Source of the DNA: Ephemerocybe angulata
Lineage: Eukaryota; Basidiomycota; Agaricomycetes; Agaricales; Psathyrellaceae
DNA length: 64,000 nt
NCBI GenBank assembly: GCA_013368325.1
Contig: JAACJK010000126.1
Coordinates: 55,026-119,025 of the forward strand
Direction: 5' to 3'
In this document: positions 13,681 through 63,410 of the stretch, piece by piece
Layout of the letters: each line of letters opens with the position of its first letter
Numbering within the stretch: the stretch's first letter is position 1
Notes under the pieces: model-generated
What the model saw: only the letters and a program-made list of their open reading frames with translations
Database searches by the model: none
What the model was told of the DNA's origin: nothing
Made by a program: the position numbers and the translations under genes

Positions 13681-14580
13681 CTACCTACCTACATACCCTG
13701 CCATAATCCATCTTTGAACTTATTTTACCTAATTCTTTCAACCCTTTGTGTACATCCTGACGATACTCATGAATATGGAGAAGCGAGTCTTGGAGGAAAG
13801 GAACTGCAGACAGCTAACAATTTTCTTTGTGACGCCTGGATCCTCTTGTCGAGACCTTTAGAAAGTCAAAGGCAAAACAAGAACGTCTCGTACAGGGCGC
13901 CTTCGGTGCGCATCGTGCGTGGAGATCGCGTGCCCGTGCAGCCATCCGCTCAGGCGGAGCCTATGCCTATACACGGTCGCGGGTGGGCAACATAGTCAGT
14001 GGGGTTCAACTCGGAATCAATGAATATGGGTGTATGGGATTTGAGAGGTGAGCGAGTGGCAAGCGCAATCGAATCAAGGTCAGATGCAATCTTGCAAAAA
14101 CTACATCTCAGGTTACAGTAGGCCGGAAGGTTAATGATTTAGGTCCTATAGATCAACCGCCACGCCGCTACAGATTGGTCTCCAGTCTTTCGACCTCCTT
14201 TTCTCTCATTATACACTGTATCGACATGGAATCAGTCAACTGCGAAGCAAATATCATGTAATCCGTCGATTTTGAAATTAAGATAAGATTGCTTGGTCAG
14301 AGCACGGGAAGCGACGAGGAGGAGAGCTTGGATCCGGAGGTCTCAGTCAATGGGTACTAGGTATATATGTGGTACGAGTACTATGTGGCATGTAGCTGAG
14401 TTGGGGGGATATTTCGCTCATGAACCACCGACTTGGTTATCACGACCAAGTATTTGGTGCACCCACTTGGGAATGCGCGCTTATCTTGGCAACTGGCCCG
14501 CTTGGCGCCTAATTCAATGTGGTTAAGGAGCGGAAAAGGTGTGGCGAGATAGAGACTTGGTGTCATTGGCGCACTCATCG
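13681..14580. other. No supported gene
   Basis: Frames here (13552-13995 plus, 14293-14526 plus, 14381-14608 minus) have no motif or splice chain that I trust. I see no regulatory element worth naming. Confidence 0.4.
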
Positions 14581-14690
14581 CGCAGTTCGGAGTGTGCGCG
14601 AAATCCATGAAATCCTTCCCTGAACTCCCCGCATTGAGGGGAGTTCAAATCTGCCCTGCCGTATTGAGCGGAGCGGGTTGGATGGGAGTG
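14581..14690 (+). repeat. Lone diverged monomer of the four-hairpin satellite
   Basis: This matches most of one 159-bp unit of the array at 55.1-56.3 kb. The GAACTCCCC / GGGGAGTTC hairpin is intact at 14622-14646, with a 7-nt loop GCATTGA. A second stem region near 14653-14676 has the loop CGTATTGA. The lines 'TTCGGAGTG' and 'GGATGGGAGTGCG' also align. It shows that the unit moves or spreads outside the array. The next 325 bases (to 15016) hold nothing I can name. Confidence 0.75.
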
Positions 14691-19429: not shown

Positions 19430-21190
19430 ACCATACCCTCGAGTCACCGACTCGAATCCCACCCGCACTTCCGCCACCCCTCGCCCCTGGAAACGCAACC
19501 ACATGATTGCGCTCACTTGCCCCCCGTCTCTTGCCTAGCCCTCCCAAATCCCGTCGACGGGAACTCCTGGGCAACTCCTGGGCCCTTACTACGCTTGCTC
19601 TCACCTAGCCCTCTCGACCCCGCATCGCTCCCGCATCGCTCCCGCCAGTCCTACTCGCCGCGCACTCCCTCCTCGGCAGCTTTGCCAGTGCAGTCGCAGG
19701 CAATACCATACCATCGGTATCAAAGCATCCAAGATCTTGCTCGACATGTATAGTTGGGGAGTTGGCGAACGATGGCGAGATGGGCGACGCAATGGAAGGC
19801 GACTAGAATGTTCTCGAGCTCGTTGCTGCCCTCGAGGACTTGGCCTTGGACTTCTTCACCTTCGGTTTCGGCATCGGCACTTCCGCGACTGGCTAATCGA
19901 AAAGAGGGTCAAACGACACCACATTTGCCAAGAGGGTACCAGGTACGCTCCTTCGATTCGTCAACTGAACTCCTCCCCCCACTTCTAGACGACGACGATA
20001 ACGAACCCCGTCCCGGAATGCATGCTCAGCAGTAAATCATTCCTCGGATTCCGCTTGTCGCAAAGCTCCCACTCCCTGGACTACTCGCTCGCAAGAAGGT
20101 AGCTCTCGAACGAAGTACCCCAACTCCTCTTCAAGAACTGATATTGGGGTCAGACACGGACCCGAGGTCCATGCCCTACTCCCGCTCCAACTGCCACGAC
20201 TCCCAGTACTGCAGTGACTCTTGAGTCTCTGGCTCCCGCTAGCGCTCGATGAACCAGCGCTCTCCGATCGCACACGTCCAAGTGCAGCTCCTCGTTTTTT
20301 CGGGCACGTTGGGAGGGTGGTAGAGAGGCTGGAGGTAAAGGATATGGAGAGGGTGGAGGGTGTCGAACCAGGGGAGGGGGGGGGATCGGCGTGGCCCTCC
20401 GGTGAGGTGTCGTCGAGGGGTCACGGTGGCAGCGAATGCATAGGGAGAATGGTATGTGGCGAGAATGCAAAAGCAAGCTATGGTACGTAAAGATTCAGTC
20501 AATTTGGTATACAGGTCACAAGTGGGAGGGGAATAGAACATACGTCCATACTTCTTCTCAGACCAGGTGTCGTAGCTCGGGGAGCGCAATCCCGCAGTTA
20601 CCGCAAATGTATGGGATAGGTTAGTCCTACAATAAATGGTGTTGTCAGTATCTAGTGTTCCGCAGTTCGAGCAGCGGGGCAAAGGTACATACCTGAATAC
20701 AAGTCCAGGCGGTTGCCTAGTCAAGCTGGACCATCAACTGTGCGCTTCTCTGGCGGATCTGAGAGAACTTGGAGATGAGGCCCAGTTGACAGTAGGAGGC
20801 TTGGTGCGTCGTGAGTTGCGCAACGCTGAGGGCGTAGCACTTCGGACTTGTAATTTCGCGGGTGCCAAAGGACCAATTCCCCCTAGATATCGTTACATTG
20901 GTAGAGAGCCCGTAGGTAGAAGCGGGTTGCTCTACCCCTGTTGGAGGTGTCGTCGGTTGAGACCAGAGCCCGAATCTACGTTCCCTCCCCTGCTCAGGTT
21001 GGGCTGGGAATCTTTGACTTGAGTAAGTTGTTCTTGACCGTATTCTGAGATAGGGAGAGCGGCGGTGGTCGACAAGGAGATGCTTCAACGGACTTCGAAG
21101 TACATACTTGCAATCGGAGCTGAGGGTTTCGCAGAAGGGTTCATCTCGCGACGCACTTGAGGATAAGAAAAAGCAGTCAATATCCATGCT
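19430..21190 (-). repeat. Block Z, copy 2 (relative of a Cys-pair protein gene)
   Basis: Aligned in order with 44290-46200: shared blocks include 'GCATCGCTCCCRCCAG', 'CTCGGCAGCTTT', 'AAGATCTTGCTCGAC' and 'TTTGCCAAG.GGGTACC'. On the minus strand a 'RCSNCGTLDTDNTIYCRTNL' stretch (near 20630-20690) matches 'RCSNCGTLDTENSIYSRTNL' in copy 4. CxxC pairs suggest a zinc-binding N-terminus followed by a Ser/Pro-rich tail. Frames are broken throughout. Confidence 0.6.
20717..21187 (-). CDS. Possible two-exon protein upstream in block Z copy 2
   Basis: Exon 1 (21187-21108, MDIDCFFLSSSASRDEPF) joins exon 2 (21017-20717) through a GTATGT...AAG intron with matching phase, giving 126 residues. No domain is recognisable and no equivalent frame was found in the other Z copies. 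It may be the 5' part of the Z-family gene or chance coding. It is held at low confidence. Confidence 0.3.
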   Translation of the reverse strand: MDIDCFFLSSSASRDEPFCETLSSDCKYVLRSPLKHLLVDHRRSPYLRIRSRTTYSSQRFPAQPEQGRERRFGLWSQPTTPPTGVEQPASTYGLSTNVTISRGNWSFGTREITSPKCYALSVAQLTTHQASYCQLGLISKFSQIRQRSAQLMVQLD

Positions 21191-24353: not shown

Positions 24354-25745
24354 TCATCTGTTCCTCCCCCGCGGACGCCTCGAACTCGCGCTACCCACTA
24401 AAACCCCCGGTGCGACTAAGTCGCTGCGTATGGACTCTCTACCGGATGCTACCTTATACCATGTAGCCTCTACGACCCTAGCGTTCAGCGCTTTCCTCCC
24501 ATACGCCTGTTTGTTTGCTAGAGCCCAGTCGATCCGCAAACGCTTACTCACGGCCGCGCGCAGACGGTTTCTTATCTCTGGTTCCGTGTGTAGCTGTGAG
24601 AGGTCTCCCTCTCTCCCGATGCGCCATTCGCATCTGAGGCACCAAATTAAGTGGGCGCACTCGGAAATTAAAATCTGAAGGAGGCGAGTCCGTCCTTTTA
24701 GGACCTTGCCATCAGCATCCTTCACGGTCAGGAGTCCCACGCCCAGGACTGTCTCGACCGTTATGTACGGCCACTCATGGCCTGTCTCGGACCATATCTC
24801 CTTAGCCAGTCTCCACACCAGCTCCTGCCCCGAGACCCTGCACTCTCTCAGGATGTGATCCATCGACTCTACCGGGGCCTCGCATTCGAGGCAGGGCATG
24901 CGATCGTCCCGTAGGGCGTCGATATTATCCCAGTACTTACCCAGTTTGTAGCCTTCATGGAGGGAGCGCCAGGCGTACGCACAGAACTTCTGGGTCAAAG
25001 TTGCCATTTTACGGCGTCGCAGGGATGTCCAGATGGCGCCCCTCGTGGGGTTCACACCGGTGAGTTCGTCTATCACCGCCCTCGTTTTCTCAATCATTCG
25101 CTCCGTATTGCGCCTCGGTTTCGGCGCACTGCGGGCCTGGATGGCCCTGTACGCCATGGCCTGTGTTAAGGCATGGACCGCAGCCCCCATTTTTTCCACT
25201 TCTCTCGCTTTCGATAGGTCCAGGGGGTCTGGGGTTGGCTTCACCGCTCCTTCGTTCGCGAGTCGGTCTGCTCCGTCATTCCCGACGTCGCCGCTGTGCC
25301 CTTTCACCTTTTTGGTGAGGACAGATGCTTTCGTGTGCATCAGCTCCCCAACGAGGGCTTGTATCACCTTCTTATTGGCGGTGTTGATGAATCCTTCGTC
25401 CAGCCGGAGCTGGGCGTGCTTCGTGATAGCGTCGATGGCATACTGGGAGTCGCTAACTATCCTCAGCCGCTTGTCCCCTCGATGCCGTTGCACCGCCGCC
25501 AGGACCGCTACCAGTTCTCCAACGTTATTGGACTGCTCAGGGAGGTCCACTCGCAGGGCCTGATTTCTAGGGTCGTCCTCTCCATACCAAACCCCAGAGC
25601 CGCACTTCGCGTCCGCCGTGCCATTGTTTATGCACGAGCCATCTGTGAAGAGTTCGACGTCTTCGCGGGGAGACTGCTGTTCAGGTGCGTCGTTGTTTCG
25701 TCGCCGCGAGTTTCTCGTCTGACGACCTTGGGTGCTCGGCGCCAT
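24354..25745 (-). CDS. RNase H type 1 protein with C-terminal CCHC finger (retroelement ORF)
   Basis: A single uninterrupted 463-residue ORF. A basic N-terminus (residues 1-27, 'GRQTRNSRRRNN') precedes an RNase HI domain. All catalytic acids are visible: D35 in 'FTDGSC', E77 in 'VGELVAV', D99 in 'VSDSQYAID' and D160 in 'GNDGADRLA', with H150 in 'KGHSGD'. The middle region is helical. 'CLECEAPVESMDHILREC' is a zinc finger of the kind found after RNase H in LINE polymerases (zf-RVT-like). The predicted activity is removal of RNA from RNA-DNA hybrids during target-primed reverse transcription. The RT and endonuclease domains are missing. Either ATG 25745 is the true start of a short element, or it is an internal Met of a truncated ORF2; its position 11 bases from the 5' junction fits both. 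Integrity implies recent arrival. Confidence 0.92.
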   Translation of the reverse strand: MAPSTQGRQTRNSRRRNNDAPEQQSPREDVELFTDGSCINNGTADAKCGSGVWYGEDDPRNQALRVDLPEQSNNVGELVAVLAAVQRHRGDKRLRIVSDSQYAIDAITKHAQLRLDEGFINTANKKVIQALVGELMHTKASVLTKKVKGHSGDVGNDGADRLANEGAVKPTPDPLDLSKAREVEKMGAAVHALTQAMAYRAIQARSAPKPRRNTERMIEKTRAVIDELTGVNPTRGAIWTSLRRRKMATLTQKFCAYAWRSLHEGYKLGKYWDNIDALRDDRMPCLECEAPVESMDHILRECRVSGQELVWRLAKEIWSETGHEWPYITVETVLGVGLLTVKDADGKVLKGRTRLLQILISECAHLIWCLRCEWRIGREGDLSQLHTEPEIRNRLRAAVSKRLRIDWALANKQAYGRKALNARVVEATWYKVASGRESIRSDLVAPGVLVGSASSRRPRGRNR

Positions 25746-54470: not shown

Positions 54471-55074
54471 TCTTCTTCGCAGATGGAAGTGTCAATGCCC
54501 TTTATTGGTGGTATGAGTTTATTCAGGCGAGGTGCACAAGGGCCTGAGCCGATACTTACCACCGATACTTACCACCACTTACTGCGCTCGCTAGAACGTT
54601 CTTTCCCTCCGCCTCGTCAACTTTTTCGGCGACTGATTTACCTGCTTGTGTACTTCTTTCTATCGGTGACTCCGAGCAATGCTAGTAGATGGACGGCTAT
54701 GGACGGTCATATCGCGAAGCCACTTCATCGTGTGATCTCTTGAATGCGATCAAGCGGGTGGAGGGAAGAAGCAACACCATTTGAATGCGCGACTAGAACT
54801 TCTCGTATTGGACTGGGCTTTGGTGCGCTGGATACTACTAGTGCTCTTATTCATCTTCTCCGTCAAATCTATTCTGTACGTTCCCTGTTCCCAGTGTTCA
54901 GCCGAAAGTTCCGAGTTGCAATTGTTGAAATGCATTGCATGGGGTGAGCGTGAGTGGATCATGTAGAATTCTATGTGTATAAAGCACCCTCTACGCATTG
55001 TATCTCCGCTTCCTTAATTTTTCTGTGCGTCATCGTCATGCACGAGGGGAGATATTGAGAGGATCGGGGCAGCT
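54471..55074. other. No supported gene
   Basis: Short overlapping frames only. It separates the kinase relic from the satellite array. Confidence 0.4.
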
Positions 55075-56277
55075 GGACGGAGCAGAGCGAAACCAGGCAC
55101 ATCTCCGCGTCGAGAGAGTGCTGCTCCGACCTGCCGCATTGAGCAGGTCGGAGTGGGCGCTAAAACCCATCCCTGAACTCCCCCGCATCGAGGGGAGTTC
55201 AAACCCGCGCTGCCGCATGGAGCAGAGCGGGATGGATGGGGGTGGGCGCACCCGAGCACATCTCCGCGTTGAGAGCGTGCTGCTCCGACCTGCCGCATCG
55301 AGCAGGTCGGAGTGGGCGCTAAAAGCCATCCTTGAACTCCCCCGCATCGAGGGGAGTTCAAACCCGCGCTACCGCATCGAGCAGAGCGGGGTGGATGGAG
55401 GTGGGCGCACCCGAGCACGTCTCCGCATCGAGAGAGTGCTGCTCCGGCCTGCCGCATTGAGCAGGTCGGAGTGGGCGCTAAAACCCATCCCTGAACTCCC
55501 CCGCATCGAGGGGAGTTCAAACCCGCGCTGCCGCATGGAGCAGAGCGGGGTGGATGGAGGTGGGCGCACCCGAGCACGTCTCCGCATCGAGAGAGTGCTG
55601 CTCCGGCCTGCCGCATTGAGCAGGTCGGAGTGGGCGCTAAAACCCATCCCTGAACTCCCCCGCATCGAGGGGAGTTCAAACCCGCGCTGCCGCATGGAGC
55701 AGAGCGGGATGGATGGGGGTGGGCGCACCCGAGCACATCTCCGCGTTGAGAGCGTGCTGCTCCGACCTGCCGCATCGAGCAGGTCGGAGTGGGCGCTAAA
55801 AGCCATCCTTGAACTCCCCCGCATCGAGGGGAGTTCAAACCCGCGCTACCGCATCGAGCAGAGCAGGGTGGATGGAGGTGGGCGCACCCGAGCACGTCTC
55901 CGCATCGAGAGAGTGCTGCTCCGACCTGCCGCATCGAGCAGGTCGGAGTGGGCGCTAAAAGCCATCCTTGAACTCCCCCGCATCGAGGGGAGTTCAAACC
56001 CGCGCTGCCGCATCGAGCAGAGCGGGGTGGATGGAGGTGGGCGCACCTGAGCACGTCTCCGCATTGAGAGAGTGCTGCTCCGACCTGCCGCATCGAGCAG
56101 GTCGGAGTGGGCGTTAAAAGCCATCCCTGAACTCCCCCGCATTGAGGGGAGTTCAAACCCGCGCTGCCGCATGGAGCAGAGCGGGATGGATGGGGGTGGG
56201 CGCACCCGAACACATCTCCGCGTTGAGAGAGTGCTGCTCCGACCTGCCGCATCGAGCAGGTCGGAGTGGGCGCTTAG
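55075..56277 (+). repeat. Eight-copy 159-bp satellite; each unit encodes four hairpins with one loop sequence
   Basis: GTGCTGCTCC recurs at 55119, 55277, 55436, 55595, 55754, 55913, 56072 and 56231, a period of 158 then 159 bases. Each unit has four inverted repeats. They are CTCCGACCTGC/GCAGGTCGGAG (55124-55153), TGAACTCCCC/GGGGAGTTCA (55174-55201), CCCGCGCTGC/GCAGAGCGGG with one mismatch (55204-55231), and AGCAC.TCTC/GAGA.GTGCT across unit joins. Their loops are CGCATTGA, CGCATCGA, CGCATGGA and CGCATCGA or CGCGTTGA. Because 159 is divisible by three, long frames of 350 (plus) and 412 (minus) codons exist; I take these as by-products. The two ends are single partial units. A lone monomer lies at 14581-14690. 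Confidence 0.92.
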
Positions 56278-56690
56278 TTTCTTGCGATGCTGATCCACAG
56301 AAACATGCCCAAAGAAAGGAGATATGCTTTCCTCGAGGTCATGTTGTGGAATCATACTGGGGGTGTCCGAAGACTGTGAATTGTAGCGCTCTGCTGGGAT
56401 GGACGTGCGACAGGATTTGTGGGTATTGAAATCCATCGTACGTCCATGAATCTAAGTGGGAGGGGTAGGTGACAATAGGAAAGCTCCCGTCTGCGGAAGG
56501 GCGATGGGTCAGCGGGGGAGATGGAGGTCGTGGTGGTCACCGGAAGGAAAGCAAAATCGTCACCATCAGCCAGGTTTCCGACGTCGTGATCTGTCGTCAC
56601 GCGTGACTGATCGGCAACTATGTATGTTAAATGGTTGATCAGGCCGTGCAAACAGCGCCATCAATCCCAACCTTTTCTCCTCCCGCCACC
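56278..56690. other. Upstream region of the PHD-like gene
   Basis: No gene. The GGGCGCTTAG motif ends the satellite at 56268-56277. A pyrimidine-rich leader ('CCTTTTCTCCTCCCGCCACC') precedes the start codon at 56691. Confidence 0.4.
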
Positions 56691-58374
56691 ATGCCCTATG
56701 AGTTGCGCAAGAAGCAAGCGGCAAAGAAAGGCCCAGAGCTTCCATCCTTCCGCCCCCGGACCCGGAAGACTCCTAGAAAGTCGAACGGTGCTCCAGCCCC
56801 ACGCCGCACACTGGCAGTTTCCCCCGCAACCGCCGGTGCGCCGCACGCCTCGGAGCAGCCGGCCCTCAAGCGCATGCGCACCCAGGAGCCCGATCGCATC
56901 TCGGACAGCATCGTTATTGTTCGCTCTGGGAACACTATCGAGGCGAACAGGGTAGGTGCTGATCAACTTTGTTCAGAATCTATTACTCACGCCGGCCATT
57001 CAGTTCTGTTCTCTGTGCGCAAACGGAGGTACGCTCTCCGTGTGCTCGAAATGCGATGGGTCTGTATGCCAGGACTGCGTAAAACCTGCCAATAACATCG
57101 CTTTCACCTGCCCTAACTGCCACGACCGAGGTCCATATGTGAGTAACGGCGACTGCCCCCTTTATTAAGACCCAGACTGACGCACAACCTGTCAAAGCCG
57201 CACAAGCTCACCTACACCTCGCGCTCTCGCGGGAGCACACAGATGCTTGATTCCTCTCCCTTATGCATCATTGCTTTTCGCCTTGCTGGCTCCCCTGATG
57301 ATGGTAGCGCAGAACATGTTGCATACCAGCGTGTCTACCCCTACTTCCGCGGGAATGTAGCCCTCATCACGGTGTGGTTTAACCTGGAGGACGATGGGGC
57401 CCAGATCAGAATTGCTGTTGGTGACCTGATCGACACACTCACCGGTCACGATTTTGCGCAGTGGGTATTTCCTAAAGTGCGTTTAACACCCACTTACTTG
57501 CGTCCACAGGTATAATCGCTTTGTTGTGACGATCACTACGCATTCCGATCCTGGACGCGGTGATCTGCACATTGTCCCGAAGAATCAAGGATCACTCACC
57601 GTGTCCAATGTGAGTTGTTTCTTACGGGATGGCGTGTGTTCTGCGTGTTCTGCGTATGCTGATACATACTACCCAGCTTATGGAATTTCTTCTCCCCGCT
57701 GGGCTGCAAAAGATCCTGGGGCGCGGCTCGGAGAAAGATCGCAATCTGTGTGTATTCTTTACATGCGGGGCTGCTGTGAAGCGGGTCAGCTCGTTCGAAG
57801 ACATCCGCAGTCTTGAGGATAGGTACGTTCGAACCGTTAATTCAAATTTTTCCCACGTCCCTAACACCGCACCAGTGGCTTATTCGCTGAGGTCATTGGG
57901 TTCACCCAGAAAGATCTTCAGCCAGAGCTTCTTTCGTCGTGGTTCAGTGACCTCGTATACTCGTACTTTGTTCTGAACTACAACAGTTCTGAACCAGTTC
58001 TGAAGAACCACCACGTAACCGGCTCTCACACCGGTATCGTTTCTTTCCGAAACAACGCCATCTATGAGTACGCCTGGGTACACCCTACTCGACAGCCGTT
58101 TGGCAAGCCGGTAGTCGCCCAATGCCTGGAATGCGGGCATCTGAACTCTTGGACAAAGAGCTTGCGCCAAGGCCCGAAGTCCACCAAGAAGGTAGCACCT
58201 TTGAAGGACGGATACGACCTGCGGTGCAAGACTCATGATTGTGAGGCAATTATGTCTTGTGATCCCCCTTCGACAAACGATTGGATTTGGGTTGGCCAGC
58301 CACTTCTCGACGGGCCACACGGTGCCTGGCTCAGGTTTGACCGCACTTTGTGTGAGTGTATTCCTACGCTCTAG
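56691..58374 (+). CDS. Cys-rich PHD-like zinc-finger protein, 6 exons
   Basis: Exons 56691-56951, 57004-57138, 57198-57460, 57510-57609, 57677-57822 and 57876-58374 join to 1404 nt (467 residues) with no error. ATG 56691 is preceded by a perfect CCGCCACC context and is preferred over in-frame ATG 56631. Residues 1-87 are basic and disordered ('YELRKKQAAKKG', 'RPRTRKTPRKS'), which suits nuclear entry. Residues about 88-125 form a C8 finger, CX2CX8CX2CX4CX2CX11CX2C ('FCSLCANGGTLSVCSKCDGS' and so on), PHD-like but with Cys where PHD has His. A globular C-terminal part ('YPYFRGNVALITVWFNLEDD', 'GRGDLHIVPKNQGSLTVSN') ends with a second metal site, 'CLECGHLNSW' and 'CKTHDCEAIMSC'. I recognise no named family; a chromatin-reader role is inference from the finger alone. 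Confidence 0.78.
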
Positions 58375-61300
58375 CTAAGCGGTGACACTCTTGCGTTCGC
58401 CCCTCCTTCTTTTCATTTGTGTTCCGCTGTATTTTCTTGACGCTCGATATAGAGAGCCCCTTTTGTTTTGATACCTTAGCTACCTGCCCCCTCCCTCGTC
58501 TTGAACCCCTTAAATAGCTTGTCAAATCAAATTTATTTCTGTCCTTACCTGCCGCAAGCTACGTGAGGATCAAGGAGGTCTGATAAACAAGCCTCAAACC
58601 ACGTAAGACTAAAGGTATTTGACATAGCAACGAAACACAGGAGAGACACGGCGAGGCCTACCCCCTGCAAAATCAGCCGCAAGACAGTGCTCGGACATGC
58701 TCGAACAAGAGGCAGCAAGTAGCGCCCACCTATAGATGTAAAAGTCCAAGCAAGTGCGAAAGGCATGCGAGGGCAAATTAAGAAATGCGCTATTTACACG
58801 CGTACGGAGTCCCAGTCATTCTCCTCAGCGACACCTAGGATGGGATGAGATGAATCAGTGATTAGGGAGAAAAATGGAGTCGATACTCAGCTTTGCTGAG
58901 AGCAGGTACGAGCGGCCTTAAGTTGGTAGCGAAACGGTCCCGAGGACGAGTCAATGATGGCGGGTGCGTTTCTTGATGAGACACTTGAAGATGGTCGCAG
59001 AGTACATAAATCTATGGAAGTCTAAAGGAAGATACTCACCCAAATAAGCACCCCAGCCACAGAGTCGAGACTGTCGAGTGCGCGAATCAGTCTACTTACT
59101 CGAGCACGGCTGAGCATTTCTGCCTGTCATATTCAATGATGAAGTGAGCGAGAGAGTTTAGATAGAGCTTAACATGTGACTTACTAGTACTGATCGTCGT
59201 TGACAGCGCAACGAGCGCTGCACAATGAGGGCGACGGAGGGATTCGGAATCTTGGGGAAAGGGAATAGAGGGGCCTTGGGGGATGGGAAGGGGGGGAAAT
59301 TCAAATAATTGCGGCATCGGATGAGAGGATTCACGAGGGGTAAGTACAACCATCAGCTCATATCAGCTCCGAGATCCACACTATCTCCTGATCTTCCGCT
59401 GATACACCCGTGAGCGAAAAAGCGGAAATTCGTGTGATTTACCGTAAAACCACGGTTTTAGCGAGAGAGAAGTCCCTCGCAGGAGTCTCGTTCTGTGCTA
59501 TTACAGTACAGCAGAATTCCTACCAATGTCCAGAGCCGTAAGACGTGATGAGACCGCGGAAAGTACGGAGGCAAGCACACGGTGTCGTAAGCGCCTGTGC
59601 AAGTGCCCGAACTTCGAAAACATCAACCATATTTATTCGGTCAAACCGCGCAGGCCGGTTACACAGTCCTACCTAATCGTACTGCACTCGCGCGCCCTCT
59701 ACAGAATTAGGCGCCCGCAGACAGGTGCACGGGCGCTACGAGCTTCCCTCTCAATCCTATCCTCTCGTGTCCTCTCCGGGATCCGGAAAATAGGTCCTGA
59801 ACGTCAGAATCCACGTCTATCAACCGAATAGACAGACGTACCTTATTCTCCGAGCCATACGGCCATCTCTTCATGCATCCTGTCCCACTGAGATGATTTC
59901 TCAGTGAAATCATCTCCGAACACCTTAGAACCTCGGCGGAGGGACGCGCAAGCGTCCAGCCGAGTGGTGCGTCATACACCGGGTCCCCAGAAGGGTAGAG
60001 AGCTTACGCACAGTGCTCCTTCGAGGAATGACGCGTCCGAACGGCCGCAAGCAAGGACAATAGAAAAACTTCTACTGTCGCCGCAGGCGCGAGGCCCGAC
60101 CGATCGGGATGAGGTCGTATGACCTCGCCTCCACCCAACACGTTGCAGTCCGCATCGATCCGATGCTTTCGTGTCCATTCGGCAATGCGGCACCCTCAGA
60201 GACGAGGGAACGTGTCCTTCCGGCAGGCGCCAACCAAAGGCACGAGCCCCTGCTCACGGTTCTATAATATATACTTTGTACCTGTAAACGTAGAAGGGGA
60301 GCAAGCAGTACTTTGTGTTTTCGACTCACCGTTGTCCGGTTCCCCAACCTCGACCTCTAGGTCTTCTGCTCTCGCGAGTCTCCGTCGCGATCGAGCTGTC
60401 TTGTCTCCCTGCGCCGCACACCACCCGGCGACCCGTTCCTCCCCTTATCCGTCCGATCCAGTCCGATCCAAACCCCCCAAACCCTTCCTCCGTGCACCCT
60501 TCGCTCTGTAAAAGAGCTTCAGCGTCGATCTGAGCAGATCCGACACCCACCTGTGCTGGTAGTGGACGTACGAGACTAAGCGCCCACGTCCCAAGTCAGG
60601 ATTCCCAATCCGGAAGCTTGGTCAGCGATCGATCAGCCGCGGCACATAGCCACTGAGCGCTTGGCCGGCGTCTAAGCCTTAGCGGCCGTCGAAGGTCGAT
60701 TCCTGGGCCGAATAAAACCAGGAAAAACCTTGATAAATCATAAATAAATTAGATTTTACCTTCTGACTCCGAATATACGTTTGTCAGCGAATCGAGAGCT
60801 CGGAACGACGGTAATAAGTAAAATCCTAGTATATTGGAGAACCTAAGAACCCTGAGACCACACCAGTCCTCGTCGAAGAGCGGCTGTGTGTTGTTTGTGT
60901 TTGTGTGTGCGGTTTTCTGCGAAGATCTTGGAGAAACCGAGTCAGAAAAGGGCTTGGAGAGCGACGAGACTCACCGAGCATGCGCATCCTCCTCAGGCGC
61001 AACCCTATCCACCTCGGCCACCTTCCGAGGTCTCGCACCTGGTGAACGAGACCTCCAGGCAGTGACTACGAGTGCCCGGAGTTACGCAGACCCGCTACAC
61101 CGTTCCGGACCTTTGTACAACGTCGTAGATGTTCGTGTTTGGCGTCGATTGTATCCAAGGAGTGCACCGCGCCGTTCACATCGAAATTGTGAAACAAACC
61201 TTGAGAAAAGCTCGTGTTAGCACACCTGTGCGACGTACCAGAGCTCTACGAAACGTGTGGGCGCGAGAGTCTTCCCCCCAAGCACCTGCAAACATTGCAG

Positions 61301-63052: not shown

Positions 63053-63410
63053 AGGGTACGAGGACGCTGCCCTGGGATTAGCACCTCGCGAAGACACCCA
63101 AAATGCCAACGCATTCGATATTGGAACGGGTTCGACCGAACCGACCGGCGACGACGCGTAAGGGGTACGAGGACGCGGCCCTGGGCTAGCACCTTGTGAA
63201 GACATACCTCGAACGCCAACGCCGGAATGAACTCGCCAATGACGCGTAAGAGGTACGAGGACGCGGCCCTGGGCTAGCACCTTGTGAAGACATACCTCGA
63301 ACGCCGACGCCGGAATGAAACCGAACCCATCGCCGATACGAGGTATGAGGACGCTGCCCTGGGCTAGCACCTCATGAAAATACCTCGACCGCTGACGCAT
63401 TGGCAATCGG
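63053..63410 (+). repeat. Four-copy degenerate tandem repeat, ~88-109 bp
   Basis: 'GGTAYGAGGACGCNGCCCTGG' recurs near 63056, 63166, 63254 and 63344 (quoted as a 21-mer consensus split: GGTAYGAGGACGC then NGCCCTGG). Each is followed by 'TAGCACCT' and 'GAAGACATACCTCG'-type sequence. Spacing falls from 109 to 88-90. Frames across it (for example 63032-63484 minus) are by-products. Confidence 0.75.

What the first reader, a model, noticed from the sequence alone, without database searches (positions are those of the whole stretch)
55075..56277. Satellite whose every 159-bp unit encodes four different hairpins with the same 8-nt loop
The sequence shows four inverted repeats per unit. Stem sequences differ completely, yet the loops are all CGCATYGA or one base away (CGCATTGA, CGCATCGA, CGCATGGA, CGCGTTGA). 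Chance or simple duplication of one hairpin would not give unrelated stems with a fixed loop. Compensatory structure with conserved loops suggests the loop is recognised by something: a recombinase, a replication protein or an RNA-binding protein if transcribed. The nearest analogue I know is the double-hairpin elements of fungal mitochondria, but those have different loops and location. I know of no described nuclear family like this.
Basis: partly seen in the sequence, partly recalled or inferred. Interest (0 to 1): 0.88.

Follow-up and report, generated by a model that had tools for sequence, protein, structure and literature searches.

The report
Y-shaped hairpin minisatellite in inkcap
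In the genome of an ink-cap mushroom, a short repeat predicted to fold into Y-shaped pairs of hairpins that share one 8-letter loop is repeated in tandem at several separate places, in two of them inside a transposon-like element; its stems probably stay matched through copying slips in DNA replication, so it is likely a structured selfish repeat, and a loop-reading protein is possible but unproven.

Summary
Window 55097-56274 is a 159-bp x 7.4 array with 30 hairpins whose loops are all within one base of CGCATYGA. Host: the ink cap Ephemerocybe angulata. Each unit is two Y-shaped modules, an outer stem enclosing two hairpins; 38 of 43 distinct modules fold so on the + strand, 37 of 43 on the - strand. 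Related arrays lie at six other places, one duplicated, plus a single copy at window ~14.6 kb. Two sit in a TIR transposon-like element, one near an integrase-type gene.

Hairpins 1/3 and 2/4 look homologous and differ by matched changes. Recent variants drift almost uncompensated (1 against 35). Within a type the loop is no more conserved than the arms; between types it is (1/32 against 16/76 sites, p 0.02).

I favour a structured selfish minisatellite whose arms are kept complementary by template switching, which spares the loop. A loop-binding protein is not excluded. New variant of a known kind.

The parts
55097..56274 (+). 159-bp tandem array, 7.4 units; each full unit = one A-module plus one B-module
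55405..55478 (+). Example A-module (third copy): outer stem GCGCACCC/TGGGCGC enclosing hairpin A1 (55415-55439) and hairpin A2 (55442-55471)
55485..55557 (+). Example B-module (third copy): outer stem CCATCC/GGATGG enclosing hairpin B1 (55493-55518) and hairpin B2 (55522-55549)
55097..55121 (+). Hairpin type A1 (first copy; loop 55106-55113, CGCGTCGA), 8 bp with a one-base bulge
55124..55153 (+). Hairpin type A2 (first copy; loop 55135-55142, CGCATTGA), 11 bp
55175..55200 (+). Hairpin type B1 (first copy; loop 55184-55191, CGCATCGA), 9 bp
55204..55231 (+). Hairpin type B2 (first copy; loop 55214-55221, CGCATGGA), 9 of 10 pairs
14576..14690 (+). Single diverged copy of a B-module (hairpins around loops CGCATTGA and CGTATTGA), 79% identical to the array in the match
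54978..54985 (+). TATAAAGC, 119 bp upstream of the array on the + strand (TATA-like; a motif match only)
55044..59409 (+). 4.4-kb segment holding the array and open frames of an unnamed gene downstream (about 56.7-58.4 kb), duplicated on contig C121 (562416-566948; 94.7% identical over 4354 aligned bases)

Best explanation
This is a dispersed nuclear minisatellite family of Ephemerocybe angulata whose repeated module is predicted to fold into a Y (an outer stem holding two hairpins with nearly the same 8-nt loop), and it is likely a selfish structured repeat kept palindromic by template switching during DNA replication. SHOWN: the arrays, the shared loop, the module plan in the sequence, matched arm differences between hairpin types, mostly uncompensated recent drift, and two arrays inside a TIR element. 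INFERRED: arrays lengthen and shorten by slippage or unequal exchange. The polymerase occasionally copies one arm from the other, rewriting a patch of stem so that it pairs again, while the loop, which is not templated, is inherited unchanged; this would give different stems around one loop. At least the C87/C104 lineage was probably carried by a TIR transposon. Some constraint on the module or loop may add to this, because modules are better conserved than spacers.
For: Seven distinct arrays, an identical second copy on C68 and one single module. Between types, arm differences fall at partner positions: C1 to B1 2 of 2 compensated (p 0.003), A2 to the C208 form 3 of 3, adjacent (p 0.001; one further 5'-arm change is unmatched), A2 to B2 3 of 3 at partner positions with 2 Watson-Crick (p 0.02). 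Arm-2 covariation score 0.246 against 0.107 in shuffles (0 of 500 as high) and at most 0.093 in the six slid controls. In C208 two of four modules carry TT where most C modules carry AA (or GA, CA), opposite an unchanged partner, so two adjacent pairs are whole; [quoted passage not shown] Recent variants drift: 1 compensated against 20 + 5 + 10 not. C104 and C87 arrays lie between 31-bp TIRs whose pattern has four hits in the genome, with near-matching 8-bp flanks (C87 7/8, C104 6/8); in C87 frames matching the rva_4 integrase domain read toward the array and end about 0.7 kb before it.
Against: Modules are better conserved between loci than spacers (88% against 70%; shuffled 59% and 52%), and loops change less than arms between types (p 0.02): purifying selection would give both, a purely neutral repeat would not. 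The direction AA to TT in C208 is inferred; TT may be older. A2 against the C2 consensus gives 1 compensated pair among 3 changes of the 3' arm (p 0.25). In one search two measures do not beat the shuffles clearly (pairs with changes on both sides 206 of 500 as high, pair types 44 of 500), the same two are 436 and 498 of 500, and the arm-1 covariation score (0.193) is hardly above one slid control (0.183). No inverted loop, the strongest footprint of template switching, was seen. Five of the seven arrays, the window's included, were not shown to be in a transposon.
Confidence: 0.45

Rival explanations
1. The array is a cis-acting binding platform in transposon DNA: a transposase or accessory protein reads the constant loop on extruded or single-stranded hairpins, as subterminal repeats are thought to serve other DNA transposons (recalled). 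The window copy would be a relic or a captured platform.
For: C87: TIR, array 0.7 kb inside it, then rva_4 integrase-type frames reading toward the array. C104: a 1.4-kb element with both TIRs and a whole array but without that gene. C208: frames matching Plavaka transposase end 2.7 kb upstream on the same strand. Loops conserved between types; modules better conserved than spacers.
Against: The array is at one end of the element only. The TIR pattern has 4 hits genome-wide, all on C87 and C104, so five of seven arrays lack it. KDZ (170 matches) and Plavaka (122) are so common here that the C208 neighbourhood may be chance; the two frames between Plavaka and the C208 array have no Pfam match, which weakened this rival (0.25 to 0.22 on rechecking). 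Searches list no KDZ or Plavaka match inside the C87 element (cut its list).
Confidence: 0.22
2. A non-coding RNA: the array is transcribed and the Y-modules present many copies of one loop to an RNA-binding protein.
For: Both strands fold well. TATA-like motifs lie within 400 bp upstream on the + strand at 5 of 7 arrays (on the other strand of the same stretches at 2 of 7). The - strand folds better than the + strand in 18 of 18 C and 10 of 11 B modules.
Against: The strand evidence conflicts: TATA motifs point to + transcripts, while changes that keep a wobble pair favour the - strand (20 against 5, p 0.004; 14 against 5 when loci are merged, p 0.06), and A modules show no preference (6 against 6, 2 ties). 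No Rfam family at gathering score; weak hits only, E 2.1 or more. Drift is mostly uncompensated. No transcript data.
Confidence: 0.15
3. A protein-coding repeat of 53 residues per unit; the hairpins are a by-product.
For: Unit length 159 = 3 x 53; open frames of 350 aa (+) and 412 aa (-) cross the array; one gene model over a related array exists in another E. angulata record (P0055).
Against: Related arrays have spacings such as 89, 91 and 92 bp that break every frame. P0055 changes frame inside the array. The two frames found 1 and 0 relatives at E up to 10 among the about 8000 best word-sharing candidates scored from 5.8 billion proteins. Both strands are open.
Confidence: 0.03
4. Simple neutral duplication of accidental palindromes, with no mechanism acting on the arms.
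For: Recent changes are mostly uncompensated, and loop and arm rates are equal within types.
Against: In the C1/B1, A2/C208 and A2/B2 comparisons all 8 changed positions of the 3' arm have a changed partner and 7 of 8 pair; the Y fold is kept in 38 of 43 modules over diverged loci; modules outlast spacers.
Confidence: 0.12

Closest known systems
Short palindromic repeats of Volvox carteri (PMC2670323; passages seen)
   Same: Families of hairpins with stems of differing length and a nearly constant loop (TAAA/TTTA); argued to be selfish; nuclear copies often degenerate in the stems.
   Different: Organelle origin, 3-5-nt loops, dispersed and nested rather than regular tandem arrays of Y-modules.
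Repetitive hairpin-forming elements and double-hairpin elements of mitochondria (PMC2800124; passages seen)
   Same: Paired hairpins, tandem copies, types differing by complementary substitutions.
   Different: Mitochondrial; in sponges the stems are conserved and the loops vary, the opposite of the between-type pattern here.
Template-switch-maintained hairpins (PMC8794818; passages seen)
   Same: Mechanism that rewrites stems with several compensatory changes at once and keeps the loop.
   Different: Described there for rRNA and microRNA genes, not for a tandem repeat family.
Subterminal repeats of TIR DNA transposons (CACTA papers seen only in the listing; transposase-binding role recalled)
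   Same: Tandem motifs just inside one TIR at C87 and C104.
   Different: The constant part is a hairpin loop, not a linear motif; the window array has no TIR found.
Parvovirus terminal hairpins (recalled, no call)
   Same: Topology: outer stem enclosing two hairpin arms.
   Different: Terminal in a virus; no viral relation is suggested here.

Membership tests
Tandem minisatellite | Head-to-tail copies of one unit | tested here: met
   159 bp x 7.4; other arrays with spacings such as 88-95 bp
Tandem minisatellite | Unit number varies between copies | tested here: met
   Type A1 hairpins: C165 8, C121 9, C117 2; copy number in the second record (P0055) could not be fixed
Fungal mitochondrial double-hairpin element | Lies in mitochondrial DNA | tested here: not met
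   119-kb contig at 49-59% GC with no tRNA gene in the window and RNase H and Plavaka transposon genes, in a 58.7-Mb assembly
Fungal mitochondrial double-hairpin element | Two adjacent hairpins per element | tested here: met
TIR DNA transposon (window array as part of one) | Terminal inverted repeats and target duplication around the array | tested here: not met
   The C87/C104 TIR pattern has hits only on C87 and C104; other TIRs were looked for around the window array only by eye at the borders of the duplicated segment
TIR DNA transposon (C87 and C104 arrays) | Terminal inverted repeats and target duplication | tested here: met
   TIRs; flanking 8-mers 7/8 (C87) and 6/8 (C104)
TIR DNA transposon (C87 and C104 arrays) | Transposase gene | tested here: inconclusive
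   C87: joined frame pieces hit PF24764 rva_4 at 39.3 bits, cut-off 26; no match of these pieces in C104, C68, C208, C117, C121 or the window
Structured non-coding RNA | Covariation of paired columns | tested here: inconclusive
   Score well above controls for arm 2, weak for arm 1, almost none within types
Structured non-coding RNA | Transcription | not testable with these tools
   No RNA data held
Described Rfam family | Match at gathering score | tested here: not met
   0 matches to 4227 families in the window
Template-switch-maintained hairpin | Several adjacent pairs restored at once, loop kept | tested here: inconclusive
   C208 TT against AA, and three adjacent compensated pairs between A2 and the C208 form; the direction of change is not known
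Template-switch-maintained hairpin | Loop inversions | tested here: not met
   A both-strand search with the hairpin model over window, L002, L003, L005 and L057 gave matches above 15 bits on one strand per array only; C87 and C104 were not in that search

The most novel reading that the evidence does not exclude
A nuclear repeat class in which one constant 8-nt loop, shown twice per Y-shaped module and up to dozens of times per array, is the functional part: a transposon- or host-encoded protein reads the loop whatever the stem, making the array a multivalent structured platform that transposons pick up and spread.
Probability: 0.25. Interest if true: 0.82.

Novelty: new variant of a known kind. 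Interest (0 to 1): 0.5.

Why it matters
Covariation in hairpins is usually read as selection on RNA. Here is a nuclear repeat family in which paired arm changes, a fixed loop and free recent drift occur together, so it can help to separate selection from replication-level palindrome repair. If the loop is instead read by a protein, it would be a new kind of structured repeat spread with transposons.

Tried and rejected
Coding repeat: rejected (spacings, frame change, relatives 1 and 0). Rfam: nothing at gathering score, three weak hits E 2.1-2.9. Loop mini-stem (C1-G7, G2-Y6): appears in folds, but loop position 6 takes C, T, G and A, so pairing there is not conserved. Loop hairpins as a genome-wide motif: not seen with the two patterns (46 hits outside arrays, at most 4 contiguous pairs, 4 hits with 7 of 11 pairs); the patterns fix the inner pairs and exclude stems ending A-T, so others could be missed. 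One search listed only about 100 of 265 hits and is not used for a count. RNA-strand test by wobble pairs: favours the - strand against the TATA evidence; with the majority base as reference the bias vanishes (17 against 20), so I treat it as unresolved. KDZ or Plavaka as the carrier of C87: not in the rows listed. Plavaka frames directly before the C208 array: my first impression, not borne out by Pfam.

Rows dropped: C165s from the rate, wobble and direction counts; in the wobble count one C121 A1 hairpin with a deletion and, on rechecking, one C68 C2 arm with an insertion that had made false events (one search replaces: 22, 6, 10 and 1 became 20, 5, 10 and 1). The C121 ninth A-module, the lone C87 C1 hairpin, the partial first and last C117 modules and the second, identical C68 array are not in the module alignments. 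In one search two C87 hairpins with a shortened arm were gapped by hand. The 16/76 and 1/32 sites were counted by hand from type consensus sequences (first as 77; corrected). In one search frames over 100 aa starting inside the array were not printed. No loci were fetched from the viral, bacterial, phage or plasmid collections.

Literature: nine searches listed no paper whose title or shown abstract describes this repeat or a nuclear hairpin family like it; those papers were seen only as listings, except PMC2800124, PMC2670323, PMC8794818 and PMC7218506, of which passages were seen.

Full report
Observation. It contains 8 A-modules and 7 B-modules, 30 hairpins. All 30 loops are CGCATYGA or one base away. 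Folding one unit gives z -5.4 (+) and -6.1 (-), with 0 of 200 shuffles as good.

Where it is. The window is contig C165:55026-119025 of a 58.7-Mb assembly. A window reading frame is 99% identical (71% of its length) to an Ephemerocybe angulata protein whose contig has the same length as C165, 119025 bp, so I take this to be that ink-cap mushroom.

Anatomy. The hairpins come in pairs closed by an outer stem: A = GCGCACCC [A1][A2] TGGGCGC, B = CCATCC [B1][B2] GGATGG, and in other arrays C = CATCCAC [C1][C2] (G)TGGATG. With at least 4 bp in the outer stem and in both arms, 38 of 43 distinct modules fold as this Y on the + strand and 37 of 43 on the - strand. In longer context 5 of 7 examples did; C208_3 and C68_4 did not. 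One C104 module shows a matched outer-stem change (CCAC/GTGG to CCGC/GCGG).

Family. DNA and pattern searches of the own genome found arrays at C165 (window), C121, C117, C68 (twice, identical), C87, C104 and C208, a single module at window ~14.6 kb, and two equal relic matches at C117:3014039 and 3022896, one of them read. Outside the arrays the 46 hits of two patterns (loop plus two closing G-C pairs) have at most 4 contiguous pairs; 4 of 46 have 7 of 11 pairs in all. So the loop does not look like a general genomic hairpin cap.

Are stems and loop maintained? Between types, largely: C1 to B1 differ at 2 positions in each arm, all partners and complementary (p 0.003); A2 to the C208 form at 3 adjacent partners (p 0.001), with one unmatched 5'-arm change; A2 to B2 at 3 partners, 2 Watson-Crick (p 0.02); but A2 to the C2 consensus gives 1 (p 0.25). 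The arm-2 covariation score is above all 500 shuffles and all six slid controls, but the number of pairs changed on both sides is not (206 of 500 as high) and pair types barely (44 of 500). For arm 1 the score is above the shuffles, one slide is close (0.183 against 0.193), and the other two measures are not above chance (436 and 498 of 500). Within types, hardly: of 36 stem departures 1 is compensated, 20 keep a wobble on the - strand only, 5 on the + strand only, 10 are mismatches (replacing). Events per site are loop 0.40, arms 0.46, outer stems 0.97, spacers 1.83; loop against arms p 0.6, and in B modules the loop is the more variable (0.31 against 0.21). Between types the loop differs at 1 of 32 sites against 16 of 76 in the arms (p 0.02). 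C-modules are 88% alike between loci, spacers (outer stems included) 70%, shuffled 59% and 52%.

Carrier. C104:124410-125802 is a 1.4-kb element with 31-bp TIRs and the array inside; C87 has the same TIRs at 126660 and 154817, with the array 0.7 kb from one end. The flanking 8-mers match 6/8 and 7/8. C87 frames between about 129.7 and 128.5 kb read toward the array; joined, they hit PF24764 rva_4, 39.3 bits over a cut-off of 26. A further frame on that strand ends at 127950, about 175 bp before the array; that it belongs to the same gene is inferred. Whether the 28 kb between the C87 TIRs is one element or holds nested insertions I could not read. C208's array lies 2.7 kb after frames that match Plavaka; two frames between them have no Pfam match. 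The window array shares 4.4 kb, an unnamed gene's frames included, with C121, and the C87/C104 TIR is not there.

Other record. P0055, a gene model from another E. angulata record, covers an array and continues into the flank of C121. The two array frames found no protein in any other species among the candidates scored; this tests predicted proteins, not genomes.

Mechanism. The combination of related but re-paired arms, a little-changed loop and free recent drift fits intrastrand template switching, which copies one arm from the other and spares the loop (PMC8794818). C208 shows two adjacent pairs whole in two of four modules where other C modules have mismatches; which state is older is not known. 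Slower loop change between types and module conservation over spacers leave room for a reader of the loop. RNA evidence is split: TATA-like motifs upstream on the + strand at 5 of 7 arrays against better folding of the - strand in 18/18 C, 10/11 B and 6/14 A modules.

Comparison. Palindromes with a nearly constant loop are known from Volvox organelles (PMC2670323), and paired hairpins with complementary differences from sponge mitochondria (PMC2800124). The regular nuclear Y-module array with an 8-nt loop is a variant I did not find described in nine searches.

Noticed in passing
window 63152-63392: Second tandem repeat, 88 bp x 2.7, 87% matches.
   Followed up: no
window 24354-25745 (-): RNase H reading frame (PF00075) with relatives in E. 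angulata and other mushrooms, probably a retroelement piece.
   Followed up: partly
L074 (C87:122003-126532, -): Long open copia-type Pol frame (RVT_2, integrase-related domains) directly outside the TIR of the array-bearing C87 element.
   Followed up: partly
C104:125428 onward: Dispersed repeat with a sharp common start; matches on C126, C152, C121:466 kb, C38, C115, C114 and C12 with no array match beside them in that list.
   Followed up: no
C68:240-252 kb: 10.8-kb tandem duplication carrying two identical arrays.
   Followed up: partly
own genome: 170 KDZ and 122 Plavaka transposase matches (lower bounds, matches not genes): a transposon-rich genome.
   Followed up: no
C117:3014039 and 3022896 (L067, L068): 49-bp relic of a C2-type hairpin with loop CACATCGA, two equal matches 8.9 kb apart, one read.
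   Followed up: partly
window 19619-19645: CCCGCATCGCT x 2.5, which shares CGCATCG with the loop but forms no hairpin by eye.
   Followed up: no
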